Shown: positions 691-24,767 of the stretch, piece by piece
Layout: each line of letters begins with the position of its first letter
Position numbering within the stretch: the first letter of the stretch is position 1
Assembly (NCBI GenBank): GCA_002005505.1
Contig: KV908501.1
Location: 124,367-188,366, forward strand
DNA length: 64,000 nucleotides
Reading direction: 5' to 3'
Source of the DNA: Botryococcus braunii
Lineage: Eukaryota > Chlorophyta > Trebouxiophyceae
Notes under the pieces: generated by a model
Database searches by the model: none
What the model was told of the DNA's origin: nothing
Seen by the model: the letters and a program-made list of their open reading frames with translations, nothing else
Translations under genes and position numbers: made by a program

Positions 691-695
691 ATTAT

Positions 696-890
696 GTACT
701 GCCTTGATTACGTAATGCTTTGATAACGTACTGCCTTGATTACGTAATGCTTTGATAACGTACTGCCTTGTTACGTAATGTTTTGTTAACGTACTGGTTT
801 GATTACGTAATGCTTTGATAACGAACTGCCTTGATTACGTAATGCTTTGGTTACGTACTGCCTTGATTACGTAATGCTTTGATTACGTAA
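696..890. repeat. Iteron-like array of 16/32-bp units
   Basis: About twelve 16-bp units alternate between gccttgattacgtaat-like and gctttgataacgtact-like forms, giving a 32-bp higher-order period. Most units are centred on TTACGTAA or AACGTAC. Units are separated by no unique spacer, so this is not a CRISPR array. Together with the palindrome just downstream it resembles an origin or protein-binding array, but nothing here proves that role. Confidence 0.75.
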
Positions 891-952
891 AGGTGGATAT
901 AATATGATGATACGGACTATGGTGTTACGGACATCAAATATTACGGGCGATA

Positions 953-1277
953 CGGACTTTAAAGTATTTTCGGCTTTTCGCCGTTGCATTTCTCTAGACT
1001 TCGGCATTCACAGGGACGTAATATATTTGCCATGGGCAGGACGCTTCGAGATGCACGCGTCTGGGCGATTTGAGAAGATTTGGGGCAAAAAGCCGAAAAT
1101 ACTTTAAAAAATATATATATATTTAAAGTATTTTCGGCTTTTCGCCCCAAATCGTCTCAAATCGCCCAGACGCGTGTATCTCGACGCGCCCTGCCCATGG
1201 CAAATATATTACGGCCCTGTGAATGCCGACAACTAGAGAAATACAACGGCGAAAAGCCGAAAATACTTTAAAGTCCG
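953..1277. repeat. 325-bp near-perfect palindrome
   Basis: The sequence from 953 to about 1107 is repeated in inverted orientation from about 1122 to 1277, with roughly ten mismatches by eye, around a short AT core (aaatatatatatat). The 17-bp motif TTTAAAGTATTTTCGGC occurs at both ends of each arm, so each arm itself looks like a small element with inverted ends placed head to head. I see no target duplication at the outer edges. It could be a foldback or MITE pair, a viral terminal hairpin, or an origin structure. Confidence 0.8.
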
Positions 1278-1608
1278 CTTACGTAATATTCACCGCATCA
1301 CGTAAGGTGGGGGAGAACAATCCGGCGCTTCTGACGTTCCTTGTCCGTAATATTCTCGACTCCTCAATCGATGTACTGCCTCGAGCGAGCTGGCAGTACC
1401 GCTCAATCGGAGAGAAGCCATTGCCAGCTCACACGCGTGTACGAGGGGATTTTAGGATCGTACGAGGGGATTTAGTATCGAAAGCCCTAATTAGGACTGG
1501 GGTGATTAAACTATCAGACCAGGTATTTAAGGCGACCTGAGAGGAGAACCACCTCATAAATCAACATCGCTCTCGATTTTCAACATTCGGAAGTCAGCAT
1601 CTAACACC

Positions 1609-2382
1609 ATGGCTCTCAAGTGCGACCGTTGCGACAAGCAGTTCAGGTTTAGATACCTTTTAGAAGCTCATCAGAACAGGAGATACCCTTGTTGGGCGAA
1701 GTCCGATGCCTTTCCATGTAGATATTGTAACGCCACGTTTCAGTATGTACAAGGCCGCTCACGTCACGAGAAGGCATGTGAAGACAAACCAGTTTGTGTC
1801 GAGTTGAAAGCTTTTGCGCATGAGGATCTCGAGTGGTTGGATTACCTCGAATTGATTAGGACGTTAGTGAACGATTCCGCGACCATCGAGGATCAACTCA
1901 TCAGGAATGGAGAGCCCCGACACATCGTGTGGGTCTTGTTGAAAATCATCTACTTCAATAAAGACACTCCTGAAAACTGCACCATCCGTTCGAAGAACAA
2001 GAGAAAACACGTATACATGGTTCATTTGGGAGAGGGGCGGTGGGAGGCCGTGGATGAGAACAAACTCGTCAAGGACATCCTTGAAACCCTGTGTTTTGTT
2101 CTGAAAGAGAAAGTGGGTGATGCCATCAGAATGTACGGACAGAGGCCGGGGAGCGGGGTGAACGCCGAGTTCGACACGGTTTTCGTGAGGCTCATGCAAG
2201 ATGTCTTGGAACCATACGAGTTTTTAGATATGGGTTCGCACTATTATTCGATTCTTGAGGATTTTGGTTTCAACCCACCACGGAAATTCAAGAATGAGCA
2301 AAAGAGGGAAGGGGCATACCACGCGATGGTCAGGGCGGTCAAGGACGGTTTACGGGTCGTATGTAAGCGTTACAGCTCTTGA
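1609..2382 (+). CDS. Virus-type zinc-finger protein (C2HC fingers plus FN...PEN domain)
   Basis: The 257-residue protein starts at the ATG in caccATGg. Residues about 5-30 and 36-58 form two CxxC-x12-H-x4/5-C zinc-finger-like units. Residues about 70-175 contain KIIYFNKDTPENCTI followed by a W-x-x-V-D segment. I associate this pattern (FNxxxPENxxI, then a WxxVd motif) with zinc-finger proteins of giant viruses (NCLDV). Its biochemical role is not established; DNA binding is plausible. The frame is intact. It lies downstream of the palindrome and upstream of tandem repeats and the recombinase, all on the same strand, and uses a TGA stop like the larger virus-like genes here. A domesticated host copy is the alternative. 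Confidence 0.75.
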   Translation: MALKCDRCDKQFRFRYLLEAHQNRRYPCWAKSDAFPCRYCNATFQYVQGRSRHEKACEDKPVCVELKAFAHEDLEWLDYLELIRTLVNDSATIEDQLIRNGEPRHIVWVLLKIIYFNKDTPENCTIRSKNKRKHVYMVHLGEGRWEAVDENKLVKDILETLCFVLKEKVGDAIRMYGQRPGSGVNAEFDTVFVRLMQDVLEPYEFLDMGSHYYSILEDFGFNPPRKFKNEQKREGAYHAMVRAVKDGLRVVCKRYSS

Positions 2383-3020
2383 TCGATCAAACGGTTCCGT
2401 CGGTCCTTCGATTCTCTCTCTCTTTCGGCCGAAACAATTTTGGCCCCTTTTCTCGAAAACATCACCATCGATCGAAGAAATATCAGCGTGCGGCAACGCG
2501 TGGCCGTGAGTCACCTTCTATCATCGGAGTTCTTGCTCGACCGAATTTTGCCGAAACTTTTTTTGACCCTTTTCTCGAAAATTTCACCATCGACCGAAGA
2601 AATTTCACCGTAAGGCACGCGTGGTAATCGATTCGCCATCTATCATCACGGTCATTGGACGTTCGATGGACCCGCCGGCTACCGAATTTTCCGAAACTGT
2701 TTTTGAACCTTTTTCTCGAAAATATCACCATCCATCGAAGAAATATCACCGTGCGGCAACGCGTGGCCGTAAGTCAGCTTCTATCATCGGAGTTCTTGCT
2801 CGACCGAATTTTCCGAAACTGTTTTTGAACCTTTTTCTCGAAAATTTCACCATCGATCGAAGAAATATCACCGTGAGGCACGCGTGGTCAGGGAGTCGCC
2901 TTCTATCAGCGGGGTCTTGGACATTCGATGGACCCGCCATCGACCGAATTTTTCCGAACCTTTTTTTGGCCCCTTTCTCGAAAATATCACCATCGATCGA
3001 AGAAATATCACCATCTCGCG
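2383..3020. repeat. 263-bp higher-order tandem repeat
   Basis: The landmark ctcgaaaa...caccatcgat occurs at 2452, 2574, 2715, 2837 and 2977, with alternating spacings of 122 and 141 bp. This is a 263-bp unit made of two related half-units, present about 2.2 times. Each half carries a tc-rich and poly-T stretch, the landmark, and an acgcgtgg box. Open frames across it in several phases are repeat artefacts. I find no gene. Confidence 0.75.
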
Positions 3021-3054
3021 GTCGACCCCCCACCTACCCTCCCCCCTCCCCCCC

Positions 3055-3870
3055 CTTCCGACAGGTGGTTCAGGGTCATTGGCGGGCACTTATGGCACTT
3101 CATTAGCAAAACTAACCACATGTCAAATATTTATATACCAATAAATACAAACGTTTGGGAGTTTGGAGAATGAAGTGCCATAAGTGCCCGATGACCAACC
3201 TGTCCGGCCGTGGTGAGGGGCCCCCCACCCCCGGGCACACCCCTCCTCCCCCCTCCCCCCCTTCTGACAGGTGGTTCAGGTCATTGGCGGGCACTTATGG
3301 CACTTCATTAGCAAAACTAACCACATGTCAAATATTTATATACCAATAAATACAAACGTTTGGAAGTTTGGAGAATGAAGTGCCATAAGTGCCCGCCAAC
3401 GACCAACCTGTCCGGCCGTGGTGAGGGCCCCCCCCACCCCCCCGGGCACACCCCTCCTCCCCCCCCCCCCCCGGCCCTCGACAGGTGGTTCAGGGTCATT
3501 GGCGGGCACTTATGGCACTTCATTAGCAAAACTGACCACATGTCAAATATTTATATACCAATAAATACAAACGTTTGGAAGTTTGGAGAATGAAGTGCCA
3601 TAAGTGCCCGCCAACGACCCACCTGTCCGGCCGTGGTGAGGGCCCCCCCCCACCCCCCCCGGGCACACCCCTCCTCCCCCCCCCCCCCCCCGGCCCTCGA
3701 CAGGTGGTTCAGGGTCATTGGCGGGCACTTATGGCACTTCATTAGCAAAACTAACCACATGTCAAATATTTATATACCAATAAATACAAACGTTTGGAAG
3801 TTTGGAGAATGAAGTGCCATAAGTGCCCGCCAACGACCCACCTGTCCGGCCGTGGTGAGGGCCCCCCCAG
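3055..3870. repeat. 205-219-bp tandem array with inverted repeats and C-tracts
   Basis: Four units begin near 3081, 3286, 3501 and 3720 (ggcgggcacttatggcac). Each unit holds this sequence and its inverted copy (gtgccataagtgcccgcc) separated by about 85 bp, then a palindrome-free AT segment, then cytosine runs of variable length that account for the differing periods. The last unit is truncated next to a GC-rich stretch. The array sits directly upstream of the recombinase gene. It is not CRISPR, because the units have no unique spacers. Confidence 0.8.
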
Positions 3871-3934
3871 AGGCTCGCCAAGCCCGGCCGGCCTCCTCCT
3901 CCTCCTCCGGGAGATCGCGCCGCCGAGGGGGGGG

Positions 3935-3963: not shown

Positions 3964-5262
3964 ATGACCACTCTCGCATCATCGACACTAAGCAAACCCC
4001 ATAAGGAAAAAATAAGACAGGTTTTACGGACGGTGTTTAAGATTAAGGACGTTGATTCCTATCCTCTGACGAAGTTGCTGGACAATCATGAGCGTGTTGC
4101 TCGGTGGATTGAGGGCAAAAACTACGCTTTGAACTCGAGACACTCGTGGTATACGATGCTCGGGGTCTTGGCAAGAGATGTGGGCAACGATGAGCTCTAC
4201 CATAAATACGGAGGGAAGGAAGGGCTGGGCACGCAGTTGGGGAAGCAAGCAGCCAATGACAACAGGCTGAGCCAAGGCATGGTCGAGCTTTACAAGCTTA
4301 ACCCACCGAGCAAACTCGCGGCCAAATTCAGAGCGTTGAGTGATTACCGGGATGATGTGAAACGTAACTTTCAATACCTCGTCATGGCCATGAACCTCCA
4401 CACCCCCCCATTGCGTTCGGACGTCGCGAACATGCGGATGGCGTCCGAAATGCCATCTGATAAGAAGGGCCGTTATCTATTGTTGACCGATCAAGGAGCA
4501 ACGATGTTACTGTACGACCGGGTGAAAGACAAGGTGACGGACATCGGCAAGCATAACTACGATGAGCAGGTGAAGCTAAGCAAAAAAGTGACCGAGATTG
4601 TAAGAAAATCATTGGACGCCTATCCGAGAACATACCTGTTGAGCAAGCTCAACGATCCAGATGCGCCGATGGGCGAGGCCGGGTACCAGCGGCTCCTCGC
4701 AAGCCTCGATCTGAGCGTGAATTTCCTGAGACACGTGTATGCGACCCATTTCTTCCTCACCCATCCATTGACCGAGGCTCGTGCCGCCCTAGCACGGAAG
4801 ATGGGCACTAGCCTAAGCATTTTAAGTAAAGTGTACAGTAAAACGGTGAACTTGCCCGACCAAGTTAAGAAGGAGTGGGGCATTCCTTTAGAAGGGGCCA
4901 CGGAGGAAGAGTCTCAACACATCATACCAGACGCAAATGTTCATCGCAAGCCTAAAACGGGTCAACTACACCGGGACGAAACGCCAGCCCAAGAGATCGA
5001 TGAGAAGCGTTGGTCAGGGAATCACTTCAAGGATAGGGCCAGCCGATATATGAACATGAGCGACAAGCAGAAACGCGCTTATGCTAGAAAAGTCTTAGCA
5101 TATGCCAGAAAGCCCGAGAATCGGCACAAGGTGAACGCATCAAAATATTTGTACAAGCTGCGCCTCAGGGAAATCCAATCGCCGACCAAAAAGACTATGG
5201 AGAAATATAACATCGTTCGAGATGAACATGCGCCCGGAGGATGGGATATCAAGCGCGTCTGA
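3964..5262 (+). CDS. Tyrosine recombinase (integrase) of virus-like element
   Basis: A 432-residue protein with an intact frame. The core-binding part covers roughly residues 10-130. The catalytic domain shows Arg151 in PPLRSDVANMR, Arg256 in NFLRHVYATHF (the canonical HxxR His position is Asn253), and the nucleophile Tyr291 in MGTSLSILSKVYSK, where Thr replaces the usual His/Trp. This layout is that of the tyrosine recombinase/integrase family, which cuts and rejoins DNA through a 3'-phosphotyrosine and inserts viral or mobile DNA. About 140 basic residues follow the catalytic Tyr, longer than a minimal integrase, and may form an extra DNA-binding tail. Such enzymes occur in virophages, Polinton-like viruses and cryptons. 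The context with TV-Pol/SF3 helicase favours a viral integrase. Whether the atypical His positions are tolerated is unknown. Confidence 0.8.
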   Translation: MTTLASSTLSKPHKEKIRQVLRTVFKIKDVDSYPLTKLLDNHERVARWIEGKNYALNSRHSWYTMLGVLARDVGNDELYHKYGGKEGLGTQLGKQAANDNRLSQGMVELYKLNPPSKLAAKFRALSDYRDDVKRNFQYLVMAMNLHTPPLRSDVANMRMASEMPSDKKGRYLLLTDQGATMLLYDRVKDKVTDIGKHNYDEQVKLSKKVTEIVRKSLDAYPRTYLLSKLNDPDAPMGEAGYQRLLASLDLSVNFLRHVYATHFFLTHPLTEARAALARKMGTSLSILSKVYSKTVNLPDQVKKEWGIPLEGATEEESQHIIPDANVHRKPKTGQLHRDETPAQEIDEKRWSGNHFKDRASRYMNMSDKQKRAYARKVLAYARKPENRHKVNASKYLYKLRLREIQSPTKKTMEKYNIVRDEHAPGGWDIKRV

Positions 5263-5781: not shown

Positions 5782-7584
5782 ATGGCGAACATCAAGCGGA
5801 TCGAAACTTTCAACCCCGAGCGTCTCCGTCGCATCATCGACCGCTCCGACCATCTGTTTCAACACCTCGATAAAAAGGGGTCACGTAGAGTGAGAGAGAG
5901 TGCTGAGCGTTATCTCAGGAAGTCTCGCGAGGGTCATATCAGTGTCACGTATGGGCCATCAAAGAACCTTCCTTACGGGGTGGGGCGGGTGTTCGCCATG
6001 GGTGGAATCGGGTTACAACCCCTAGAGAAACGCATCCGCCACACGATTGCGGGTGAATACTATTGGGACGTAGATATGGTCAATGCTCATCCGACGATAT
6101 TGCTACAGTACTGTCTCAAGCATGGCATCCCGCATGCCAACCTATCGGGCTATGTGAATGACCGCGACGCCAAGCTCTCAAGTCTGATGTACGCTATGGG
6201 CATGGACAGAGAGGACGCCAAGCGCTATGTATTGAAATTCATCAATTCCTCCGGAACGGTCGCGCGGATATCACCCTCGTGGTTCAAAGAGCTCGCACGA
6301 GAGCTGTGTCAGATCCGTAAGAGGGTGTGTGATCTGAACGAAGATGTGAGGCCGTATGCCGATAAATCGAAGAACAACGAAGAAGGATCTCTCACCAACC
6401 TGGTCTTATGTACGATGGAAAACGGGTGTCTGATGAAACTCGTCGAGTTTCTGGAGAGTAGGAATTTCAAGGTGGGTGTGCTCGTTTTCGACGGGTGTAT
6501 GGTTGAGAAGGGGACGGACGAACTCACGGATGACGTCTTGGCGGAGGCTCAAAATTATGTCCTTGAGAAAACGGGGTATGACATTCCTCTCTTGATCAAA
6601 CCCATGGACCAAGGCTTCACGGAGGAGGAGTTGAATGACCCGCCAGGTGGGGTTCAGAAGATAGACGAGCGGGCCACGTTGGTACTCACCAGTCCCGTGG
6701 GTGACTTCAGCTTTGCGCAGGTGGTGGCATCCATGGGGGAGGGGAGGTTCGTCCGCAGTGACTCTGGTTGGTGGTGGTGGGACGAAAAGACGGGGAGGTG
6801 GGGGAGAGACAACATCCAAGTACATCTCGGACGCTTCATATCGCGGGAGGTTCGAGCGGAGTATGTTAGGGCTCTACGACTGTACGATGAGGCACCAAGC
6901 CCCATCAAAGCTGAAATGGCCATTCCCGATGAGAAAGCACTCCGCTCGGCACCAGATCTTCTTCTTAGCAAAGTCAAAAAGGACCACATCATATCCGAGT
7001 GCTCGAAACAAGATGGAATGTACGAACCGAAATTCGAGGAGAGGTTCGATGCCGACCCGTATCTCATGGCCTTCAACAACGGGCTGTGGGACGCTCACCA
7101 GATGAAATTCAGACCCATCGAGAAGAACGATTACATATCTTACACGACGGGGTACGATTATGATCCTCACGTCTCGACCGAGGAGGTGAGAAGGATTATA
7201 CGAAGAATGTTCGAGGATGACGGCACATTCATCTCGCTTATCGAGGTGCTCGCAGCGTCGATGTTCGGGGGAAATCGAGAAGAGATTTTCCTGATTCTTC
7301 AAGGAGCTGGCCGAAACGGCAAGGGTCTTGTGTTAGACTTGGTGATCAAAACGTTCGGTGAAGACTACATAGGGTCGATCAGAGAATCTTATTACACCTC
7401 GCATGAAAAACACAGTGAGTCTGGAACGCCCATGCTGCTCGACTTGAGAGGCAAGCGTCTAGGCATCACGGACGAAACGACAGACGAAGCGAAATTCATC
7501 ACCAGAACCATGAAGAGGGACACGGGGGGCGGGATGGTGAAAGGTCGAGCGCTGTACAGCAACACCGTGATTTTAACGAAGTGA
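5782..7584 (+). pseudogene. TV-Pol/SF3 helicase fusion, N-terminal part (split by element A)
   Basis: I start at ATG 5782 (MANIKRIETF); the frame is open 13 codons further up but only from GTG. The N-terminal half shows WDVDMVNAHPTILL (Asp96, Asp98, His103), matching motif A of family-A-like TV-Pol polymerases, and VLVFDGCMVEK (Asp237), the motif C counterpart. The C-terminal half is a superfamily 3 (D5-type) helicase: Walker A GAGRNGKG (508-515), Walker B RLGITDET (559-566), and MKRDTGGGMVKGRALY. This fusion is known in virophages, Polinton-like viruses and related transposons, where it replicates DNA. The true gene stops at 7571; the last four codons and the stop come from the inserted LTR. 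The rest continues at 13747. Joined at the 5-bp duplication the gene would encode about 782 residues. Confidence 0.78.
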
Positions 7585-8020
7585 GACGTGTAACTAAGAT
7601 TTATAACAGCTAAGCAAGGGTTTCAGGCAAGGGTGACACCGAAGGTAGAAATCGAAGTTCCAATCCGTTACAAGTTCGCAGCCCTCCTCACGCAGGTCGT
7701 CCGAGTCTCCAAAGAACAATATATAATGAACAATGTAGATAATGCTAGATGTCTCACTCGTAGCAGCAAACCCAAAGACAATGATAACCACCCGAGTTCC
7801 TAGTCCACCTATGCGCGGATCCGGCTACGTCGTCCCTCTACGAGATGCTCTCGCGAGCATAGCGATATGGATGACGAGAGGAGACCCACTAGGATATTAC
7901 AGTCATTTTCCTACACACAAGGACAACGAGATCTACTCGTATCCCAAAGGGCACGAAGAAACATGAACTACGCGCACATCCTACGTGAGACGCGTCGCGC
8001 TGACGCGGCACCTCACTACA
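7572..8020 (-). repeat. 3' LTR of element A
   Basis: 449 bp, identical by inspection to the copy at 13293-13741. On the minus strand it begins TGTAGTGAGGTGCCGC and is preceded by the purine tract. Confidence 0.93.
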
Positions 8021-8033
8021 TACTCCCCCCCTT
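8021..8033 (-). other. Polypurine tract of element A
   Basis: Minus-strand AAGGGGGGGAGTA abuts the 3' LTR, the expected start site for plus-strand DNA synthesis. Confidence 0.75.
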
Positions 8034-8690
8034 ATTCCTGTGCGTCCCCGCGCAGAAGGCAGAGCGCAACAACAAACAGACAAGACAAACAAAGGAACAA
8101 GACCTTCCAACATGCGGAGACTCAGACCTACGGGCAACCCGCCTCCCGTGTTGCCAGACCCCAGCCGAATGCTGCGTATCGGGGTCCCCACCATAATGCA
8201 ATAAGAACAAGGATCAGGCATGACTAACAGAACAAAAGACAAAACACTGAAAGAAAAACGAAAGTCCACATGATGAACAGCCAAAATGAGACACAAGGGC
8301 AGAGCTAAAAGTCCAGATGTCCAAAAGTCCAGAGTCCAAGGGGAGTCCAATTTCCACATATAGTCCAGTATTACGCCAGTATTGCACCATATTGATCAGG
8401 TGTGGTAGTGAAGTGAAAAGGCCATACACCTAATGTGCACAAAAATCTATCCAGGTAAGGGACCCATGGTCAACCCTACCGGGTAAGGCAGCCTTACCCT
8501 AGCCTATCCAAAGTCCATATGGCCATACAGAGAGACCCCTCCAAGGAGGGCCAACCGGTCGACGGGACCCTAAGGGTGGACCCTAGGAGTCGTGCCCTTG
8601 GGAGGCAATGGCGGGAGCCCGTGACTCTCTCTGTATTCTTCCACTTTCTTGTGGCAACAACGCGTGACCTGTGCAAGTTATTTCCAGCTA
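8034..8690. other. Element A 3' untranslated region, no gene seen
   Basis: Between the deleted integrase and the purine tract I find only short overlapping frames without recognisable domains. No chromodomain is detectable on the minus strand. Confidence 0.5.
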
Positions 8691-8769
8691 TCCTCATTTG
8701 GCTCGTTCGGATCGTACAGAGTGCGGCCGCGTTCGCCAGTGAGTGGCTTGTGATCCACAATGCCACCAC

Positions 8770-11700
8770 ACCCGGGATCCACGATACATCCACACCCATG
8801 TCCTTAACAATTGTGCTAGAGTATAAGCATCAGCATTCATTGTTGTAGCAGCAAAATGAGCACACTTGTTAAGCCTATCCACGACAAATCAAATAGCATC
8901 ATTTCCACTTGGGGTCTGTGGGAGGTTGCTAATAAAGTCCATAGACACACTTTGCCACTTCCTTGCTGGTATTTGTAAGGGGTGAAGAAGTCCAGCAGGC
9001 AAAGTATTCCGAGCCTCGACTCGTTGACAAGAGTCACAATGAGCAACATAGGCTTTGACATCCTCATACATTCCCGGCCAATACCATTCCCTTGTGACAA
9101 GCTCGTACATGCGAGTTACTCCAGGGTGACCAACATGAGGTGGATCATGTAAAGCTTCCAAACGTCGTAGGTTCTCCACGACAAGTTCCCCATCTTTCCT
9201 TTCCTCAAACAATGCAGGAACATATTTCCGTCCATTCCTCTCCCAAAAGCCTCCCTTTAGACTAACCTTCCTTCTATTCGCACGCGCTGCCAACCACGGA
9301 TCGTATGTGTAAGCCTTCTCAAGTTTGCCAAGTAGGGATTCGTACCCATCGGTCTCGCGGGTAAGCTCACTCGGGCTGGCCAACCCGATTTGCTCCATCG
9401 TGCCGAGGGAGCTTGGGGTCTCGTGAGCGGGCCCCGGGAGCGTGACCTTGGGCACCTTGCGGACCCGAGCTGTGAGGGTACCCTCGACATCCCGGCTGGA
9501 GGGGGTGAGGGAGTCCGGACTGGTGCGCCGACGCTTGCGCCGGAGGGCAGCCCCGGCCACAGCAGCCCCATTGTCCCTCCCCCCAGGTCCAGGGTGTTGA
9601 GTGAAGTGACACCTGGAGAGCGGATCCGCAATGTTGGTCTTGCCCGGTTCCCATACCCATTCAATCTCAAACTCCTGCAGGCGCTCGGCCCACCGAGCCC
9701 TCCGAGGACTAAGCCCCACCTGTTGACCCAAGAAGGTGTTGCACTTGTGATCCGTCACCACCGTTACTGGCTTACCTAACAAATAACATCTCCATTCCGT
9801 GAGAGCATACACTACAGCCAATAACTCCCGTTCCGTGGCACTGTAGTTCCTCTCGCTTGCTCCCAACTTTTTACTGAAATACGCACAAACCTTCCCATCT
9901 TGAAATAGCACAGCTCCCACGCCGTAATTGCATGCATCGCACACTACCGTAAATGGCCGACGTACGTCCGGGAGTGTTAAGATAGGGGCACTTACCAAAG
10001 CTTCCTTTATGTTGTCAAATGCTTCCTGTTGTTCCTGTCCCCACTTCCAAGGTGCTTTTGCCCCAGAGAGAGCTGTCAATGGGGTTGCCAGGATACTGTA
10101 CTTCTGAATAAACTTTCGAAAGTAATTAGACAACCCAAGAAACCTCCTAACTTCCGTTACGTTTGTGGGCGTAGGCCACTCCTGCACCACCTTGACTTTA
10201 TCCATATCCACTTCCAACCCATTTTCCCCAATGATGTGTCCCAAGTATTTCAATTGTTTCTCAAAGAAAGAGCATTTGACAAGTTTTGCCAGGAGTTGAT
10301 GTTCGCGTAGACGGGTGAAAACTCTGTCCAACTGCAGAAGGTGTTCCTCTTCCGTTTTGCTATAAATGAGCACATCATCCAAGTATACAACCACAAAGCC
10401 TTCCCTTATAAAGTCGTGAAAAACCTCATTCATAAGCCGTTGAAATGTCGCGGGCGCGTTGGTCAAACCAAAGGGAAGTACAAGAAATTCGTACAAGCCA
10501 AAAGGGGTCCTGAAGGCAGTTTTAGGCACATCCTCCTTGCGAAGTCGCACTTGATGGTACCCAGACAACAAGTCCAAGCTCGAAAACACCTTGGCTCCCT
10601 TAAGCCTATCCAACAGATCGTCAATTCTGGGGAGAGGGTACCTATCCGAGATGGTAATTTTATTCAGGGGACGGTAGTCTATTACCATACGCAAACTTCC
10701 ATCCTTCTTTCTAACAAACAAAACAGGTGATGCAAATGGTGAGCAACTTGGCCTGATCAATCCCAATTTTAACAACTCATCAACCGTTTTTTCGCATTCC
10801 GCAAGCTCACTTGGAGCAAGACGGTACGCGGGCCTATTGGGGGGCCGATGTCCTTCTTCCAAATTTATTGTGTGAAACACTTCCCGCTCCGGGGGTAACC
10901 CCGGGAGTTGTTTTGCAAACAAGTCCTCATTTGCAAGTAACAAGTCTTTCAGGGCCTGTGGCTTGCCTTCCAACATGTCATTTATTTGATGAGTGAAAGT
11001 CATACCGGTACTACTGGGGGGTTTTGTGACGACGGGGGTGTCGTCCATAGATTTGTCGGTGTCCGCCAAGTCGGCCTCACTTGAGGCGTCCTCCCCGGTG
11101 ATGTCCACCAGTTCAGCCTGCTCATTCACAAGCACAGTATACAAACAAACCTTCCAAACATCTTGACCCTTCCATCCTTTTCCATTCCTATCCTTCCTTC
11201 CTTCCTTCCTCTCTTGTGCTTGTAAACCCCAAACAAGTTTTGGCCCCACTGGCAACGATGAATTTGCGTGTTTTAGGGTGACCCACTTCCCATTATGTCT
11301 AAATTGAGCAGCCTTTACACAAAAATCAATTGAGACTCCTCTTTCTTCCATCCAGTCCTGCCCCAAAATCATGTCTACCCCATCAATCATGGCAGGGCTT
11401 ACAATGAAGTTGTGACGGGAAGTTATACCAGGCTTGAGTGTAAACGACACATCTACCGTTCCTTTCGTATCGGACACACTTCCATCAGCAAGAGTCACGG
11501 ATATGCATGCGGGTTTGTATCGCACCCCTAGCCCTTGCAAAGTATCACTTTTAATAAACGAATGAGATGCCCCACTATCAAACAACACTGAAAGGATTTT
11601 CCCCTTAACATTCGCCGGAAAGGTCATAGCTAGCGGAGAGTCAGTAGTAACACTTCCCATGGTGAGTGTGGGTCTTGGGGGAACCACACAACATACAAAA

Positions 11701-11993
11701 GAGAATGGGTATACACTAGTTTGACCATTCATGTCCACCGCCTGTCCCTTCCTTCCTGAACACACTTCCACAATCCTTCCTTGCATACGGTGAGCATAGA
11801 GACTCTTACTTTTCCAAGTTTTCCTTCCCACAATGAAACAACAAGTGAGGGACGGGTTGCACCTTTGTTCCCATAAAAACTTGGAAATCTCAGATTCAGC
11901 CTTCCTAACATTTGGCACCACAAGGTTCACCCCTTCCTTTCCCAAATTGGAGGCCACAAGAGAGTGCAAAACATGCAAGCAAGTGGCATCCAT
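8770..11993 (-). pseudogene. pol: Element A pol (PR-RT-RH-truncated IN)
   Basis: The frame opens at ATG 11993, 11 nt after the gag stop and in a different phase. Order: protease with LFDSGASHSF (Asp near residue 139), reverse transcriptase with YLDDVLIYS, RNase H, and the integrase zinc domain (H...H...CDSC) up to SMDFISNLPQTPSGNDAI. The next codon is TGA (near 8886) where relatives have Trp. The frame then resumes as VVDRLNKCAHFAATT and ends soon after in unrelated sequence. The second catalytic Asp, the Glu and the chromodomain are missing, so integrase is inactive. The sequence is closest in style to pol of element B in this window: both begin with the same FxxGxKxWKS segment. Confidence 0.88.
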
Positions 11994-12004
11994 GGCTTCA
12001 GAAT

Positions 12005-13213
12005 TTACTTTTGAGGATTATGCCCCGGCCCTTTTCCCTTCCAATGTGCTCCCCGGCCACCACGGCCCTTCCACTGCCCACCTCGAGCTTGATTAGAGGG
12101 GAAAGGAGGAGGTGGGGGCAATTGACTGTCGCGCCTGCTCTTCCTTTGCAAGTAGTCCCGCTTGGCCTGACATTGCCATTGCTCGTGACCAAAGTTTTTG
12201 CAGAAATAACACTGGCGCTCGGAGGGGACGCTTGTCCGAGAATCTAACTTCCCACCAACGTTGTGTCCGATGGCTCCAAGCACAGGCCCCTGGGTGAATC
12301 CCGGAAAGTATGCCGGCGTGCTTGTTGGAGTCCTCTTCACAACGTTGAGAACCTTCCTTCCTTCCTGTCCCCTCAGCATCCCCCCTGATTTTAAGTTGCT
12401 TTCATATTGCACCACATAAGTGTACAATGAGTCGAGGCTTGTGAACCTGACACCAGTTTGAGGGTTAACTGTGCAAGCAACTCTAATAGGAGCATTCAGG
12501 CCTTTGAGGAACATATATATTTTATCATTTTCGCAGATGTCATATTCGGTTTCTACATCACTCAACAAGGAAATAAACCTTTCTATGTATCTTTCAACGC
12601 TTTCTTGCCCTTGATAAACATGGTCTAATTTTTGCCGGGCAGCCATAACCAAATCTGTAGAGTCGTATCGATTTCCCATAAAATTTTTAAAGTCTTCCCA
12701 TGTTGGCTCTGTTTGACCTCCTTCCCTTTCCTTCCTTTTGAGGTATGTCCCCCAAACCTTTGTAGGTCGCTCCTCCATACATTGCAGCGCGACTGCCACC
12801 CACTTGTCCCTTGACACATTTGAAATGTTCACATATGATTCCACCTTACTAGCAAAGAATTGGAAGCTTCCTCTTTTTCCTGTAAACATGGCTGGTGTAG
12901 GCACACGCACGACGTTAGTGGTGGATGACGTCCGCTTGGATGCTCGTTCTCCCTCCAAGGCCTCAATCCGCTTCAATAACCGTAGAATTAGGGATTTAGT
13001 CTTATTTTTCTTCAAGGGTGTCTTCAAAGGAGTGGGTTTGGGTTTCGTTTTGGGTGTGGTCGGTTTGGGCGATGGGGCCAGATGCAATTCCGTTTCGGAC
13101 TCTTCCAAAAGATCATCGACTTCAATACCTTCCTTTTCCAAACCTTCCAAAATTTCTTTCTCTTTAAGGGGGAGACCGGAGTACTTGTTTCCTTTCCGTT
13201 TAACCGCCATCAT
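12005..13213 (-). CDS. gag: Element A Gag polyprotein
   Basis: An intact frame of about 403 residues from ATG 13213 (an in-frame TTG lies just upstream). It has a charged N-terminus, the Ty3/gypsy capsid segment (RGSFQFFASKVESYV ... ERYIERFISLLSDVE), a linker, then a CCHC zinc knuckle CYFCKNFGHEQWQC near residue 345 and a basic Gly/Lys-rich tail. It packages element RNA in virus-like particles. The stop is followed 11 nt later by the pol ATG. Confidence 0.85.
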   Translation of the reverse strand: MMAVKRKGNKYSGLPLKEKEILEGLEKEGIEVDDLLEESETELHLAPSPKPTTPKTKPKPTPLKTPLKKNKTKSLILRLLKRIEALEGERASKRTSSTTNVVRVPTPAMFTGKRGSFQFFASKVESYVNISNVSRDKWVAVALQCMEERPTKVWGTYLKRKEREGGQTEPTWEDFKNFMGNRYDSTDLVMAARQKLDHVYQGQESVERYIERFISLLSDVETEYDICENDKIYMFLKGLNAPIRVACTVNPQTGVRFTSLDSLYTYVVQYESNLKSGGMLRGQEGRKVLNVVKRTPTSTPAYFPGFTQGPVLGAIGHNVGGKLDSRTSVPSERQCYFCKNFGHEQWQCQAKRDYLQRKSRRDSQLPPPPPFPSNQARGGQWKGRGGRGAHWKGKGPGHNPQK

Positions 13214-13277
13214 GTTGCAATGGAACAATGCAATTACAACCTTCCCTACGTCTCCCTTCGGTTCGAGGCTCTAACCG

Positions 13278-13291
13278 CCTCGCCGATACCA
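13278..13291 (-). other. Primer-binding site of element A
   Basis: Minus-strand TGGTATCGGCGAGG lies one base inside the 5' LTR. It resembles the initiator-methionine tRNA site (TGGTATCAGAGC) common in plant LTR elements, and the same TGGTATCGGCG core recurs in elements B, D and E. Confidence 0.75.
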
Positions 13292-13292
13292 A

Positions 13293-13741
13293 TTTAACGA
13301 AGTGAGACGTGTAACTAAGATTTATAACAGCTAAGCAAGGGTTTCAGGCAAGGGTGACACCGAAGGTAGAAATCGAAGTTCCAATCCGTTACAAGTTCGC
13401 AGCCCTCCTCACGCAGGTCGTCCGAGTCTCCAAAGAACAATATATAATGAACAATGTAGATAATGCTAGATGTCTCACTCGTAGCAGCAAACCCAAAGAC
13501 AATGATAACCACCCGAGTTCCTAGTCCACCTATGCGCGGATCCGGCTACGTCGTCCCTCTACGAGATGCTCTCGCGAGCATAGCGATATGGATGACGAGA
13601 GGAGACCCACTAGGATATTACAGTCATTTTCCTACACACAAGGACAACGAGATCTACTCGTATCCCAAAGGGCACGAAGAAACATGAACTACGCGCACAT
13701 CCTACGTGAGACGCGTCGCGCTGACGCGGCACCTCACTACA
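13293..13741 (-). repeat. 5' LTR of element A
   Basis: Partner of the LTR at 7572-8020; same length and no difference seen. It is followed by the GTGAT duplication at 13742. Confidence 0.93.
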
Positions 13742-14305
13742 GTGATGGAGTTCCGACTCTTTTACACTCCTCTCCTCTCGACAAATTACGAAATCCTATG
13801 GACCGATGTGGATGTGGGGCTCATGAAGCGAGCCGTCAAGATTCACTTCCCTCTGTTCTTCGGCAAAGTCGGGGACAGGGATTATGACCCGAACAACCCA
13901 TTACACAAGCTGGCCGACCTCACCTTGAAAGACAGGGTGAAAAACGATGTCTCTTTGCGGCAAGCTTTTGCGAACCTCATCCTGGAGAGCTACAAAGCTT
14001 ACAAGGAACGGGGACACCTTCTCCTGTCTGATTCGGTTAGGGAAACCACGGCAGAATACACCGCAAACCTCAACCCTGCTCTACAGTGGGCGAACCAAAA
14101 CCTTGAGAAAGGAACCCAAGATACCGTTACGCCTGTGAAAAGGGCATACGAAAAGTTCCTCGAAGACACTGGCACGGTGGGCATAAGTTTGACCAAGTTT
14201 ACGAGGCTCCTTAAAACTAATTGGGCAATCGACAGGAAATGCGTCGAGGGATCCAAACAGAGCGCGCTGAGCGGATGGAAGCTCATAGGTGATTCTCACG
14301 CGTGA
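13742..14305 (+). pseudogene. TV-Pol/SF3 helicase fusion, C-terminal part
   Basis: Directly after the LTR, the target duplication restores the codon phase and the frame continues MEFRLFYTPLL for about 185 residues to TGA at 14303. The segment holds the end of the SF3 helicase fold (WTDVDVGLMKRAVKIHFP is typical of the region after motif C) and a C-terminal domain with DPNNPLHKLADLTLKDRVKND and a KFLEDTGTVGISLTKF helix, as in D5-like viral helicases. It lacks its own start, so it is not expressed alone unless from the LTR. The end overlaps the convergent coiled-coil gene by 10 bp. Confidence 0.78.
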
Positions 14306-14862
14306 CCGGGAGGCGCGAACAGGATTTTCCGAATCGCGTCGTGTCTCAGCCGCTCCACCTCTTGCCTGTAGTGAGCGGCGACCATGGCTTCTTGTTCGCC
14401 CGAGACGACCCGTGCCGCTTTCTTGTGAACCCTCGTTGGCTTGATGACGACCTCCTCGTCATCAGTGCTCGAGTCATCCGACGAGCTACTCACGGCCTTC
14501 TTCAAGAGCTTCGTCTTCCTTCTGAGCTGTTTCTCTTTCTGTTTCAGTTGGAGGACCCGTTCCGTTTCAGCGAGGCTCCTCTCCTGTTTCTGGAGGTCTC
14601 TTTCCCTCCTGGCAATTTCTGCCTTTTCTCGCCGAGCCTGTAGAGCCTTCTCGCGGTTCGCGTGGAGAGCAGCTACGCGTCTGTCGATGACCTCTTGTGA
14701 TGCCCGTTTTCTAGCAGGTCGTGACGAGCCTCCATCGTTGACCGTCCGGGTCGCCCCTCGACCGAGCTTGACCGTCGTGATGGGTTCATCCACCGACTCT
14801 CCACCCTCGCCGTCCGATGACGATGAGGTCAGATCGAGCATAGAGCGTGTCATGTATCCCAT
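14296..14862 (-). CDS. Charged coiled-coil protein of virus-like element
   Basis: 188 codons on the minus strand, intact. An acidic Ser-rich N-terminus is followed by a long highly charged helix (residues about 60-120, rich in Arg, Lys, Glu and Gln with a heptad look), a second acidic Ser patch (SSSSDDSSTDDEE), and a short C-terminal helix. No family is recognised. It overlaps the helicase 3' end and is transcribed divergently from the fibre-like gene across only about 36 bp of AT-rich sequence, the tight spacing typical of viral genomes. A structural or DNA-binding role is possible but unproven. Start could also be the Met four codons in. Confidence 0.6.
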   Translation of the reverse strand: MGYMTRSMLDLTSSSSDGEGGESVDEPITTVKLGRGATRTVNDGGSSRPARKRASQEVIDRRVAALHANREKALQARREKAEIARRERDLQKQERSLAETERVLQLKQKEKQLRRKTKLLKKAVSSSSDDSSTDDEEVVIKPTRVHKKAARVVSGEQEAMVAAHYRQEVERLRHDAIRKILFAPPGHA

Positions 14863-14898: not shown

Positions 14899-15241
14899 AT
14901 GGGAGTTACCATTCCGAGAGACGAGTCTCGGCTGATCAACCCTGCCTGGGTGCGGCCGACGCAGTAGAGCGTGGACGTCACGGGCTTCGGGAATGTATCC
15001 CACTTCTTGACATCCAATGACCTTCCCGTCTTAAGCTTTGTGGCTTACTCTGGTTCCTACGTGTCCTTGAGTGACACCCCCAATCTCAGTGTGTACGCGC
15101 TGAGTAACACCCTGAGTCAGGTGGCCACGACAGGCTCATACTCGTCCTTGAGTGACACCCCCAATCTCAGTGTGTACGCGCTGAGTAACACCCTGAGTCA
15201 TGTCGCCACGACAGGCTCGTACCTCTCCCTGAGCGACACAC
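14899..15241 (+). pseudogene. Repeat-rich fibre-like protein, 5' part, with in-frame TAG
   Basis: ATG 14899 opens 22 codons (MGVTIPRDESRLINPAWV...) ending at TAG 14965. The same frame continues at once with SVDVTGFGNVSHFL and then 27-residue repeats of the type GSYSSLSDTPNLSVYALSNT at 15052, 15133 and 15214, exactly 81 bp apart. Such Gly-Ser-Tyr/Leu-Ser-Asp-Thr-Pro repeats are common in tail-fibre and receptor-binding proteins of phages and algal viruses. Element B cuts the gene at 15241, and the remainder should lie beyond the window. The TAG may be inactivating, or a readthrough or sequencing artefact. Confidence 0.6.
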
Positions 15242-15717
15242 TGTGATGGAATGTAGGGATTTCCCGGCATTTCTGGACATTTCCCTTACCCCCTAGCCTA
15301 GGCGCACATGTGGTGCACATGTCGTACGAGCAACGCGAGTACGCACGTGCCTAGCGTCTAGCCTTGGCTTCCTAGCCGTCGAATTCCATTGGATAGTTAT
15401 GGACGTTACTCTCATAGTAGGATTCTAGGATATTTTCTAGATACTATTGTAGAGGTTTGGTGGACTAGTGCGCTACCATTGGAGGAACGTGAACACACGA
15501 TCACGAACCACGGGAAGGAACGGATAGAGACGTAAGCCACGGGAAGACACGCACTCAGGTAATTTGGAAGCTTAGTAGGCCACAAGTAGGGAGTGGAAGC
15601 TCCGTGAGGTGGGGGTTACTTGTAATTGGAAAGAGCGTCCAACTTGTCGGCCATCCGGCCTTGTCTCTCTCTCTCTCACAACTTGGAAATTCTCTCTAAC
15701 TCGTGCATTCTACTACA
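15242..15717 (+). repeat. 5' LTR of element B
   Basis: It starts TGTGATGGAATG and ends CTACTACA, about 476 bp, two bases before the primer-binding site. Its partner is not in the window, so the boundaries rest on the TG...CA ends and the primer site. Confidence 0.75.
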
Positions 15718-15719
15718 TC

Positions 15720-15733
15720 TGGTATCGGCGAGA
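15720..15733 (+). other. Primer-binding site of element B
   Basis: TGGTATCGGCGAGA, matching the initiator-Met-tRNA-like site of elements A and E. Confidence 0.75.
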
Positions 15734-15835
15734 TGCCGAATTGTTCTCTGCAAGTCTTTCGCGTGGTGGAAGGAGGAAAGTCGTAGGAGGGAGATCGTTC
15801 GATGGAAGGTCCTAACTCTCATATGTGGGCCGTAG

Positions 15836-16595
15836 ATGTCACCGCCCTCTTCTGGGAAGTTTAAAGACCTTTCTTCGGAAGAAAGAGAATTTTTGGAAGC
15901 GTTGGAAAGCTGCAGGGGAGCTGGTTGAGGACTTGATGGAGGGGGCATCTGGCGATCCGTCGCCCGCTCCGTCCACACCAAAGACAAAGAAGATCAAGTT
16001 AACCAATAAAATAAAGGAGCAGTTATTTCTGGAATTTAAGGAAAAGCTTCTTGCCGAAAGGCAAGTTGGAGGGGATGGGGTGGAGGAGACTCCTCGCCCT
16101 AGTGGACAAGTAAGAGCAACTCCTCCTTCTTTGTTTTCGGGAAAGAGGGGATCTTTTTGCTATTTTGCAAGGAAGTTGGAAGGCTATGCAAAACTAACCA
16201 ATGTGCCTGCAGGAAAGTGGGTGGCCTTGGGAGTGCAATTGATGGAAGAAAGACCTACAAAAGTTTGGGACACACATGTAAGGAAACTAGAAAAGGAAGG
16301 GATACATGAGCATACATTGGAATGGAAGGATTTTAAAACTTTTATGGTTAAAATATATGATTTCACAGACAGAGTGGCCATTGCCAGGGCAAAATTAGAC
16401 AAAGTCTTTCAAGGAAATGAGACTGTCGAGAGATATATTGAAAGATTTATGTCTCTCTTAGCAGATGTAGAGGTTGACTATCAAATAGCCATGCAAGACC
16501 AGTTACATCGTTTTACCAAGGGTCTTAATACTGCTCTCAAACTTGCATGCACTGTGAACCCTGCAACAGGCAGTCCTTTCACTGATCTGGAAGAC
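15836..16595 (+). pseudogene. gag: Element B gag, segment 1 (frameshifted N-terminus)
   Basis: The likely start is ATG 15836 (MSPPSSGKFKDLSSEEREFLEAL), which resembles the N-terminus of element A Gag (SGLPLKEKEILEGLE) but hits TGA near 15926. The main frame, open from 15825 only by GTG, carries the rest from about 15910. A single-base frameshift near 15905-15925 is therefore likely. The capsid segment RGSFCYFARKLEGYAKL ... ERYIERFMSLLADVE is present. The frame ends in DLED at the AAGAC target site of element C and resumes at 22554. Confidence 0.75.
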
Positions 16596-16758
16596 TGTAA
16601 AGTTATCCGAATTGTTTGCACCGATGAAAGTGCCAGTGTGGCCCGAGCGCCACACCGTATGTGCTAGCGCGAAGCCTAAAGAGGCTACGCCTAGCCTAAT
16701 GTACCGCTTGGCATCCGACGGGGCTAACCCTGGCGGAGTCTGCCTGCCGCGCGCTACA
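16596..16758 (-). repeat. 3' LTR of element C
   Basis: 163 bp, TGTA...TACA on both strands. No difference from 22386-22548 by inspection. Confidence 0.93.
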
Positions 16759-16770
16759 TTCTCCCCCTCC
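16759..16770 (-). other. Polypurine tract of element C
   Basis: Minus-strand GGAGGGGGAGAA immediately upstream of the 3' LTR. Confidence 0.75.
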
Positions 16771-17187
16771 TAGGTGACCGAGCTCCCGGGAGGCCTGCCA
16801 AAGCAAGCCGCACTCACAGGCAGAGGCGTATAGAAGGTCACTGCGACACTTCTATACATCACACTTTGAGCCGGCGAGTCTCCTCCAGACACCAGACCGC
16901 AGCCTGGGTGTACACTTGCCTGAGGTATCTCTATGGTACGCCTAGACCAGAATCCCGCAGTGACGGGGCCCAAAGGGCAGTCGTCGGCGTGGACAAATGT
17001 ACACTCCACGTGTACAGGTTCCCATGAAGAAGCAGTGAAGTTGCTAGCTTCAGGGCGGATAGTAGGGGCCGGGGCTGGACGACACTTAGCCACCAAGTCA
17101 GGGGACGTTCTGTGATCACGCGAACGTATGGGTAAACCACGACCCCCCGGTGACGCAGCTTGACAGCCTCGTGCTGCTGTGTTTCCC

Positions 17188-20100
17188 CTAGTCAACCTGC
17201 CCACGACGGCGTGCCCCGCCTCGTGGTGCCCGTGCGTTGACTGTGTCCCAGTATCCCTTTACAACATTGGGAGCATTTGTCAAATTCCGTTCCTCTTCCC
17301 AGGTGTCATGCTCTGACGAGTAACCCTTCCAGCGGACAAGGTACTCATACTTGGGACGGCCACGTGAATTGACACGACGGTGGTCCATTAAGGCTTCCAC
17401 CTCGTACTCATCTTCCCCCTCCAGCACCTCTGCAGGTGGTGGGGGTTGCATCGAACCATCCCGCCGGTACCGTTCCAGGTTGGAGACATGAAAGACATCA
17501 TGAATCCTCCATCGTGCCGGGAGGTCAAGCTCATAAGCTTGGGTACCCACACGTTTCACGACTTGGAACGGCCCTACCCAACGCGGGAGGAGCTTGGGCG
17601 TGCCCACCTTGAAACGGAGGTTCTTAGAGGAGAGGAGGACCCAGTCCCCCACACCAAATTGAACGTCCCTTCGTTTGGTGTTGGCATACTGCGCTTGTCT
17701 AGCAGTGGCCACCCGATGGGTCATCCTGGCCTCATTGATGAGGCGTTGCATGCCCTGAACAAAGTCAGACGCACCAGGTACCCGTCTATTGGGGAGAATC
17801 GCGACTGGCAGGTGGGGGTGAAACCCGTAGTTCAGCAAGAACGGCGAGGACCCCGTGGACTCGTGATCGCAATTATTGATCGCGAATTCTGCACAGACCA
17901 ACTTCTCATCCCAATCATCCTGGGACTTGGCCACATACATGCGTAGCATGTCCTCGAGCACTCGATTCACTCGCTCAGTCTGCCCATCCGTCTGCGGATG
18001 GTAGGCTGTTGACATGGCTTGTCGAGTCCCAATGGATTGACACAAAGCTCTAGCAAAGTGGCTGGTGAAGAGCTTATCTCTATCGGACACCACCACTTGG
18101 GGAACACCATGCAACTTCCACACATTGTCAACGTACAGCTTAGCCGTCTGCTCAGCCGTAGCCTTGGTGGTTGTGGGCATAAGATGCACCATCTTGGTCA
18201 GCTTATCCACTACGACGAAAATGGCATCATGACCCTTGCCTGTCCTAGGCAATTGGGTAATGAAATCCATAGTCACCGTGTGCCAAGGATTCAGCGGCAA
18301 CTGTAAAGGTTGCAGCAACCCCGCAGGCAAAGTGTTCCGAGCCTTGTTCTTCTGACACAAGTGGCACGTTAGCACGTAACGTTCGATGTCAGCAAGCATG
18401 GTAGGCCACCAATAATGGCGCCTTACCAGGGCCAAGGTTTTCTTCACTCCTTGATGGCCAGCATACGGGCTATCATGCAGTTCCTTGAGGATGTGAGCTC
18501 GCAGCCCGAAAGCATCCGGAACCACGGCCTTCCCCTCCCTCAGAAGGAAGCCGTCAAAGTCTAGCAGACCTTCAACATTCTGCTTATCTTGGAACCATGG
18601 GTCTTGAGTATAACCCTGGACAAATTTGTCCTTCCAAGACAGAGCAACCCCGGCCGCAGCACTCCCCTCCCCCGCAGAGCGGATAGTGCCAACCAAGGCA
18701 CAAAGAGAGAGCGTTGGCAGACAACGGTGCGCCGGGTGCGAACACCCACCAATCACCACGCCATTGATGATTGGACAAGGAGCCTCATAGTCGGACGGAT
18801 GCCGACTCAGAGCGTCAGCCACCACATTGGACGTTCCGGGGGCATAGTCCATGCGAAAATTGAACCTTGAAAGGAACTCTGCCCACCTGGTTTGCCGTCT
18901 ACTTAAAGTAGGCAAAGTGTCCAAATAAGTGATAGCCTTGTGGTCCGTGACTACACGAAACTCAGGGGCCCCCTCTAGGTAGCACCTCCAGACTGTCAAT
19001 GCATGCACCACAGCTAGAAGTTCTTGCTCCCCAGTAGGATAGTTAACCTCAGCGGGAGTCAAGCGACGACTCTCGTAGGCAACTGGGCGACCCTCCTGGT
19101 ACAACACGGCCCCCAACCCTGCCAAAGACGCATCGCAATGGACCTCAAACGGCTTTGAGAAGTCAGGATACGCTAAGCAAGGTGCATGTGTCAAGGCATG
19201 TTTAATCTCGGTAAACGCCCGAACACACCCAGCACTCCATACCCAGGTCACACCTTGGCGTAGGAGTCTGTACAGTGGCGATGCAAGTGCTGCAAAATTG
19301 CGAACAAACTTGCGAAAGTAAGTTGCCAGCCCCAGGAAAGACCGCAACTCGCCAACATTCTTCGGTGTGCTCCAATTAGCAACTGAAGCCACCTTACGTG
19401 GGTCCACTTTAATCCCATCTGCTGAGACTAAATGGCCCAAGTACTCCAGCTCATCTTTGGCGAAAGAGCACTTCTTTAGGTTAGCATACAACTTATGCTG
19501 CCGCAACAGTTCAAGGACTTTGCGGAGATGCTCCCTATGCTCTTCAATGGACTTGCTGTAGGTGAGGATGTCATCAAGGTACACGAGCACAAACTTGTGC
19601 AGGTAAGGAGCAAAGATAGCATTCATGGCAGTTTGAAACGTGGCCGGGGCATTAGTTAGCCCAAATGGCAAAACCCGCCACTCGAACAACCCCGCGGGTG
19701 TTCTGAAAGCTGTCTTTGGCATATCCTCATCTGTGATCCGGATCTGGTGATAGCCAGACGTGAGGTCAAGACTAGAGAACACAGTAGAACCCTGCAGTTG
19801 ATCAAGAGTATCATCGATACGAGGCATCGGATACCTGTTCTTGACCGTCTGTCGATTCAAAGCTCGGTAATCAATGACCATCCGGAGGCTTCCATCCTTC
19901 TTTTGCACAAAAAGAATGGGCGCACCATAGGGTGATGTAGACGGCTGTATATACCCTTTGTCCAACAATAGCTTTGTCTGGCGTAACGCCTCATCATACT
20001 CTAAGCGTGAAAGCCGGTACAACGGACGAGACGGTGGACGAGCATGTGGATCGCTCAAGGATATAGTGTGTCTAACCCCTTGCCTCTCAGGCGGAAGGTG

Positions 20101-22281: not shown

Positions 22282-22367
22282 TAAACCCAAACAAAGGAGC
22301 GCAACCCCAAACCGAAAAGCGAAGATGCTTTAAAAAAATTTTGTCAAGCCAATCAAAGCAGAAGTGA

Positions 22368-22383
22368 CCGATATGGGGCACCA
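22368..22383 (-). other. Unusual primer-binding site of element C
   Basis: Minus-strand TGGTGCCCCATATCGG, two bases inside the 5' LTR. It starts with TGG as required for a tRNA CCA end but differs from the TGGTATCGGCG site of the other gypsy elements. The matching tRNA was not identified. Confidence 0.6.
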
Positions 22384-22385
22384 AA

Positions 22386-22548: not shown

Positions 22549-22553
22549 AAGAC

Positions 22554-24753: not shown

Positions 24754-24767
24754 GGTTATGGGCCCAC
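24754..24767 (+). other. Copia primer-binding site of half-tRNA type
   Basis: GGTTATGGGCCCAC directly follows the LTR. It is complementary to the anticodon stem-loop of initiator Met tRNA (around CAUAACC), the internal half-tRNA priming known for Drosophila copia, rather than to a tRNA CCA end. Confidence 0.75.

What the first reader, a model, noticed from the sequence alone, without database searches (positions are those of the whole stretch)
5782..14305. Recently split TV-Pol/SF3 helicase gene of an endogenous virus
The gene shows motifs of a family-A-like polymerase (Asp96/98, His103, Asp237) fused to an SF3 helicase (Walker A 508-515, Walker B 559-566). An LTR element with LTRs that look identical interrupts it, and the GTGAT duplication restores the frame exactly, with no other lesion over about 2.3 kb. 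So the viral gene was intact until very recently, which suggests a young or still functional viral insertion. The TV-Pol assignment follows from motif order and known virophage/Polinton-like fusions.
Basis: partly seen in the sequence, partly recalled or inferred. Interest (0 to 1): 0.8.

Follow-up and report, generated by a model that had tools for sequence, protein, structure and literature searches.

The report
Algal virus gene split by retroelement
A small DNA virus integrated in the genome of a green alga, most likely Botryococcus, had its DNA-copying gene cut in two by a jumping element not long ago; viruses and damage of this kind are known, and what stands out is that several related integrated viruses in this genome are broken in similar ways.

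Summary
A TV-Pol/SF3 gene (5782-7571 and 13742-14305) is cut by one Ty3-type element (7572-13741; LTRs 449/449 identical; 5-bp duplication). Each half, searched apart, matches adjoining parts of relatives that run across the site.

The viral reading holds and widens. The window lies in a 176-Mb genome, most likely Botryococcus. The gene sits in a Polinton-like provirus of about 21 kb (inserts not counted); its inverted repeats are window 691-3934 and a copy some 80 kb away on the same contig. Beyond the window it has a fibre with an S74 chaperone, a P-loop ATPase and capsid candidates, collinear with a 20.8-kb relative on contig C32. A second provirus on the same contig has its different replicase cut by another LTR element.

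"Young" is supported (inverted repeats differ at 8 of 1734 sites). "Still functional" is not, for this copy: two more LTR elements break it, one a 50-kb nest. LTR identity is a weak clock here, since scored copies of this LTR are 97-100% alike genome-wide.

New member of a known kind. The capsid calls rest on size, place and conservation; no profile confirmed them, and no structure prediction ran.

The parts
691..3934 (.). Left terminal inverted repeat of provirus 1 (C174:125057-128300); its partner is C174:207906-206475 and 201206-199415, inverted
   Evidence: self-comparison of the contig stretches fetched: 99.6% over 1432 and 96.9% over 1826 alignment positions
1609..2382 (+). C2H2 zinc-finger-like protein inside the inverted repeat
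   Evidence: zf-C2H2 below the curated cut-off (E 0.0061); one database relative, P0055, 58%; second copy in the right repeat, in two pieces, 96-97%
3964..5262 (+). Recombinase-like gene, candidate tyrosine recombinase (R151, R256, Y291 by eye)
   Evidence: no Pfam, PHROG or PDB match; one database relative, P0054, with K at the second arginine; homologues beside TV-Pol on C32, C295, C355 and in provirus 2
5782..7571 (+). Replicase, first part: TV-Pol domain and first part of the D5/SF3 helicase (Walker A and B)
7567..7571 (+). Target duplication GTGAT, left copy
   Evidence: read
7572..13741 (-). Element 1, Ty3-type LTR element, 6170 bp; integrase interrupted by an in-frame stop and similarity ends near 8778
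7572..8020 (-). 3' LTR of element 1
   Evidence: 449/449 identical to the other
8889..11993 (-). pol of element 1 (protease, RT, RNase H, integrase zinc domain)
12005..13228 (-). gag-like ORF of element 1
   Evidence: similar to gag-like ORFs of other elements in the window
13293..13741 (-). 5' LTR of element 1
13742..14305 (+). Replicase, second part: rest of the SF3 helicase; 13742-13746 is the right copy of GTGAT
14296..14862 (-). Coiled, charged 188-aa protein
   Evidence: homologues at the same place on C32, C356, C603 and in provirus 2
14971..15241 (+). Start of the fibre gene (SDTPNL repeats), cut by element 2; it goes on at C174:189739, outside the window
15242..64000 (+). Element 2, Ty3 type, with nested elements; it runs past the window to C174:189738. 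LTRs window 15242-15717 and C174:189263-189738, duplication CACAC, gag pieces 15825-16595, from 22554 and 47735-47923, pol 59836-63996

Best explanation
A Polinton-like virus of about 21 kb with inverted repeats of about 3.2 kb integrated into the nuclear genome of a green alga, most likely Botryococcus braunii or a near relative. Its replicase joins a TV-Pol domain to a D5-type SF3 helicase; by family precedent it primes, unwinds and copies the viral DNA. The neighbouring recombinase-like gene probably did the integration. Afterwards LTR elements of the host landed in the provirus at least three times: element 1 split the replicase between Walker B and the later helicase motifs, element 2 split the fibre gene and took in further elements to become a 50-kb nest, element 3 split the right inverted repeat. 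Shown: anatomy, adjoining halves in relatives, inverted repeats, collinear relatives, target duplications. Inferred: enzyme activities, capsid identities, role of the recombinase, name of the host, and that this copy is dead.
For: Halves adjoin in P0002, P0003, P0004 and phrog_1156. D5_N E 2.3e-17; profile A1 finds primases and D5 proteins in the PDB (7 of its 8 matches at E 1 or better). TV-Pol motifs. Inverted repeats and three LTR inserts on C174. Fibre with S74 chaperone E 7.5e-10, lipase-like, ATPase, MCP-like and mCP-like ORFs. Same order on C32 between its own inverted repeats. MCP-like matches at six loci. TVpol-S3H with a tyrosine recombinase is an established PLV layout (passages of PMC12220804, PMC10675990, PMC4642659).
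Against: No profile or solved structure confirmed the MCP-like or mCP-like protein or the recombinase. Eight scans of IMG/VR with replicase, recombinase, MCP-like and ATPase queries confirmed no relative. The polymerase fold was not modelled. Divergences do not by themselves order the virus before element 1 (Fisher p 0.37).
Confidence: 0.88

Rival explanations
1. The element is a transposon or plasmid-like mobile element that never makes particles: replicase, recombinase and inverted repeats are real, but the capsid candidates are something else.
For: MCP-like and mCP-like proteins have no profile support; TV-Pol also occurs in bacterial and plastid mobile elements (PMC2579912).
Against: Fibre with an S74 chaperone and tail-fibre PHROGs, P-loop ATPase, and the same gene order with the MCP-like protein 87% alike on C32 and in provirus 2.
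Confidence: 0.08
2. The split is an assembly artefact: two loci were joined through copies of a common LTR element.
For: The LTR family is abundant and nearly uniform, which invites mis-joins.
Against: An exact 5-bp duplication at the break, and halves that adjoin in three relatives; flanking genes on both sides keep the order seen on C32.
Confidence: 0.03
3. The provirus is active as it stands: the insert is tolerated, spliced out or lost through recombination between its LTRs in part of the cells.
For: Both parts of the replicase are open and most other frames of provirus 1 are open.
Against: Elements 2 and 3 break it too, and the fibre frame shifts at two further places.
Confidence: 0.02

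Closest known systems
Polinton-like viruses with TVpol-S3H and a tyrosine recombinase (cryptophyte cluster C1, PMC12220804; Cymbomonas and Bathycoccus PLVs, PMC10675990; [quoted passage not shown]
   Same: Replicase fusion, recombinase-like gene, fibre, ATPase, capsid candidates, 20-21 kb, inverted repeats, integrated in algal genomes
   Different: Other host lineage; zinc-finger gene inside a 3.2-kb inverted repeat; recombinase too diverged for the profiles used; capsid proteins not matched to any library used
Sputnik-type virophage replicase (V13; PMC2579912, PMC3671162)
   Same: TV-Pol fused to a D5/SF3 helicase
   Different: Not compared directly; no Sputnik sequence was at hand
Retroelements inside endogenous small DNA viruses: Ngaro in EMALEs (PMC8547959), Ty3/Gypsy in PLVs (PMC10120064, PMC10675990)
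   Same: Host retroelement interrupts an integrated virus; PMC8547959 lists one insertion in a primase/helicase gene
   Different: Here LTR elements with 5-bp duplications, one grown to a 50-kb nest, and two neighbouring proviruses each with a split replicase

Membership tests
TV-Pol family (Iyer et al. 2008, PMC2579912) | Two conserved palm aspartates | tested here: met
   D96 and D237 invariant in 25 aligned sequences
TV-Pol family (Iyer et al. 2008, PMC2579912) | Fingers aspartate and RxxxK motif | tested here: met
   NDRD at 126-129 and REDAK at 143-147; K147 invariant, R143 not; assignment of the motif by eye
TV-Pol family (Iyer et al. 2008, PMC2579912) | Hairpin arginine contacting the template | tested here: inconclusive
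   R69 and R86 are invariant; which one it is was not determined
TV-Pol family (Iyer et al. 2008, PMC2579912) | Family-A polymerase core (thumb, palm, fingers) | not tested
   structure job failed and later jobs were not accepted
D5-type SF3 helicase | D5_N region, Walker A and B, later helicase part | tested here: met
   D5_N E 2.3e-17; phrog_1156 matched by both halves; TIGR01613 E 3.7e-16 for the N half, below its curated cut-off
Polinton-like viruses | Double jelly-roll major capsid protein | tested here: inconclusive
   425-aa candidate; no Pfam, PHROG or credible PDB match
Polinton-like viruses | Minor capsid protein and packaging ATPase | tested here: inconclusive
   mCP-like ORF without profile match; ATPase with P-loop, only weak general AAA matches
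Polinton-like viruses | Genome of 14-40 kb (size range as in the abstract of PMC12220804) | tested here: met
   about 21.3 kb without the three inserts; 20.8 kb on C32
Polinton-like viruses | Tyrosine recombinase or rve integrase in many members | tested here: inconclusive
   recombinase-like gene with residues read by eye; no profile match
Ty3-type LTR retrotransposon (element 1) | LTRs, 5-bp duplication, PBS, PPT, gag, pol with RT before integrase | tested here: met
   the integrase is incomplete

The most novel reading that the evidence does not exclude
LTR elements of this alga do not strike proviruses by chance but are drawn to them, for example through chromodomain integrases that seek silenced chromatin, so that retroelement traffic is what disarms newly integrated Polinton-like viruses. 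Two neighbouring proviruses on one contig each have a replicase split by a different LTR element and each carry further LTR insertions; four pol ORFs in the window carry a chromodomain. Element 1 itself lacks that region, and the flanks of its other copies were not examined.
Probability: 0.15. Interest if true: 0.7.

Novelty: new member of a known kind. Interest (0 to 1): 0.45.

Why it matters
It reveals a multi-copy family of Polinton-like proviruses in what is most likely Botryococcus, an oil alga; four full-text searches pairing Botryococcus with viral terms held no paper (open-licence papers only). It gives several clocks in one place: inverted repeats of the virus and LTRs of the elements that hit it. 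Provirus 1 and provirus 2 share MCP-like (87%) and ATPase (84%) proteins, yet their replicases differ (TV-Pol 43%; helicase of the DUF5906 type in provirus 2), an apparent replicase exchange. And it makes the question whether retroelements target proviruses testable in one genome.

Tried and rejected
Eight scans of IMG/VR (five replicase queries, one recombinase, one MCP-like, one ATPase) matched patterns but confirmed no relative; two of these queries were alignments of other database TV-Pol proteins, so the scans or the collection may simply be blind to this group. Phage records gave 362 matches; the 20 listed cover at most 50% of the query at 23-24% identity. Rfam (gathering cut-off) and ARAGORN found nothing in the window. 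A test for conservative change on the window branch was weak: random missense reached the observed score in 853 and 43 of 20000 resamples for the N half (against P0003 and P0004) and in 7438 and 3683 of 20000 for the C half, on 4 to 10 changes each. Dating by LTR identity alone was dropped. Targeting by element 1 was not tested. On C295 the same LTR family lies near a TV-Pol fragment (LTRs at 43633 and 56651), but the sequence between looks like another element (by eye). The fibronectin matches of the MCP-like protein (E 6e-4 for the single sequence, 0.07 for the profile) are taken as chance.
Full report
What is there. An open frame begins at 5782, is cut after 7571 by an LTR element that fills 7572-13741, and resumes at 13742 to the stop at 14305. 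The LTRs are identical over 449 bases and GTGAT stands on both sides (duplication read). The element is of Ty3 type on the minus strand: a gag-like ORF similar to other gag-like ORFs of the window, pol with protease, RT, RNase H and the integrase zinc domain, a primer-binding site at 13280 and a purine tract before the 3' LTR. Its pol frame meets a stop inside the integrase, and similarity to the intact pol at 59836-63996 ends near 8778, so it probably moved with help from a relative (inference).

The two halves belong together. I searched them apart. The N half found 53 proteins at E 1e-5 or better, one of them its own translation; 7996 candidates were scored, those sharing most words. Among the closest, P0002 (60%) and P0003 (89%) carry Botrbrau1 gene names, read here as Botryococcus braunii. 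The halves match adjoining residues of P0002, P0003 and P0004 and adjoining stretches of phrog_1156. These relatives run on where the window has the element.

What the protein is. D5_N matches at E 2.3e-17. A profile of 25 sequences (the window's and 24 of the 52 other homologues) finds eight PDB sequences at E 1 or better, seven of them primases or D5 proteins and one an ABC transporter at E 0.1. Pfam found no polymerase family in these 25. Iyer et al. 2008 (abstract and two of three parts of the main section read) describe TV-Pol by a two-helix thumb, a hairpin arginine, two palm aspartates, and a fingers aspartate with RxxxK. D96, D237, K147, R69 and R86 are invariant, and NDRD (126-129) and REDAK (143-147) fit the fingers motif by eye. 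The fold was not tested. By precedent such proteins are predicted to prime and copy the viral genome (same paper; passage of PMC4642659).

The surroundings show a provirus. The window is C174:124367-188366 of a genome of 176.1 Mb in 989 contigs. Window 691-3934 recurs inverted at C174:207906-199415, where a third LTR element (201207-206482) lies inside it. Between the repeats, beyond the window, follow the rest of the fibre gene with an S74 chaperone (E 7.5e-10), a class 3 lipase-like protein (E 3.3e-5), a 346-aa protein, a P-loop ATPase, two small proteins, a 425-aa MCP-like protein and an mCP-like protein. Without the three inserts the span is 21.3 kb, duplications counted twice. On C32 the same order lies between inverted repeats from 575420 to 596230, and its replicase frame is open over 783 codons; that copy is not flawless either, for matches to its fibre, lipase-like and 346-aa proteins change frame. 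MCP-like matches lie at six loci: C174 twice, C356, C32, C612, and C622 in two pieces. The zinc-finger and replicase relatives P0055 and P0004 come from a JGI contig of the same length, 68124, probably one contig. I call the capsid genes candidates: size, place and conservation (87%) speak for them, but no profile or solved structure does.

How it broke. Element 2 (C174:139608-189738) carries the duplication CACAC and LTRs with 2 differences in 476; its gag is split by an element with 163-bp LTRs, its gag end lies at window 47735-47923 and its pol at 59836-63996, so it is a nest of 50.1 kb. Element 3 has 7 differences in 944 (duplication TCACC by eye). The virus's own inverted repeats differ at 6 of 1432 sites in the outer part and at 8 of 1734 with the non-repetitive inner part; with the tandem repeats of the inner part it is 15 of 1785 there. 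So all these clocks read under one percent. The virus must have been there before element 1 entered it, but the counts do not separate the two times (Fisher p 0.37). LTR identity is a weak clock: 43 matches of this LTR, from 40 scored of 372 candidates, are 97-100% alike. The fibre frame of provirus 1 also shifts twice beyond element 2, against once in C32; repeats make this count uncertain.

Not a single case. The N half has 15 matches, which I read as about seven TV-Pol loci on six contigs. The window's is split by element 1. Provirus 2 on C174 (recombinase-like gene from 215530 to mCP-like gene at 246199) has a different replicase, TV-Pol 43% alike with a DUF5906 helicase (E 3e-19), split by an element with LTRs at 219051-219747 and 225371-226067 (2 differences in 697); the relative P0005 has its residues 375-600 before and 597-641 after it. 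Another element ends at 215529, where the match to the recombinase-like gene begins at residue 21. On C355 the halves of the replicase lie 47 kb apart, with the stretch between not annotated; C295 holds scattered pieces, C603 frame breaks, C769 fragments; C32 is open. C356 has MCP-like, fibre, zinc-finger and recombinase-like matches but no TV-Pol match. Ty3 insertions in PLVs and Ngaro insertions in endogenous virophages are in print (passages of PMC10675990, PMC10120064, PMC8547959). LTR elements are the main class I elements of B. braunii race B (passages of PMC11286282); that paper's main text names viruses only in its reference list, by the passages shown.

Verdict. The finding is right: the virus is real as far as gene order and profiles go, young, and in this copy almost certainly dead. 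As a kind it is known. Four full-text searches joining Botryococcus with viral terms held no paper, within an open-licence library. Whether retroelements favour proviruses is open and is the most interesting question left.

Noticed in passing
window 15242-64000: Nest of LTR elements inside element 2: LTR pairs 16596/22386 (163 bp, 100%), 24019/45945 (736 bp, 99.2%), 26416/28639 (299 bp, 100%), 30425/36620 (202 bp, 100%).
   Followed up: partly
C174:209648-246199 (L020, L021, L028, L029): Second, related provirus in the same orientation on the same contig, with a different TV-Pol/helicase replicase, also split by an LTR element.
   Followed up: partly
window 953-1277: Near-perfect foldback: 156-nt arms, 94% complementary, 13 nt apart, inside the inverted repeat of the provirus.
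   Followed up: no
window 691-890, 2428-3012, 3038-3868: Tandem repeats (32, about 263 and 219 bp) inside the inverted repeat.
   Followed up: no
window 13280, 15720, 30630: Three elements share the primer-binding sequence TGGTATCGGCGA, one of them on the minus strand.
   Followed up: no
C174:104367-107889 (L016): A second copy of the end of element 2, 95.6-99.6% alike, outside the provirus.
   Followed up: no
C356:71050-87823 (L030 in part): Provirus-like locus with MCP-like, fibre, coiled, zinc-finger and recombinase-like matches but no TV-Pol match.
   Followed up: no
L027:3179-4237, minus strand: C32 provirus has a 352-aa protein with several C2H2 zinc fingers (E 3.7e-19) and a C-terminal part that was not identified, next to the mCP-like gene.
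   Followed up: no
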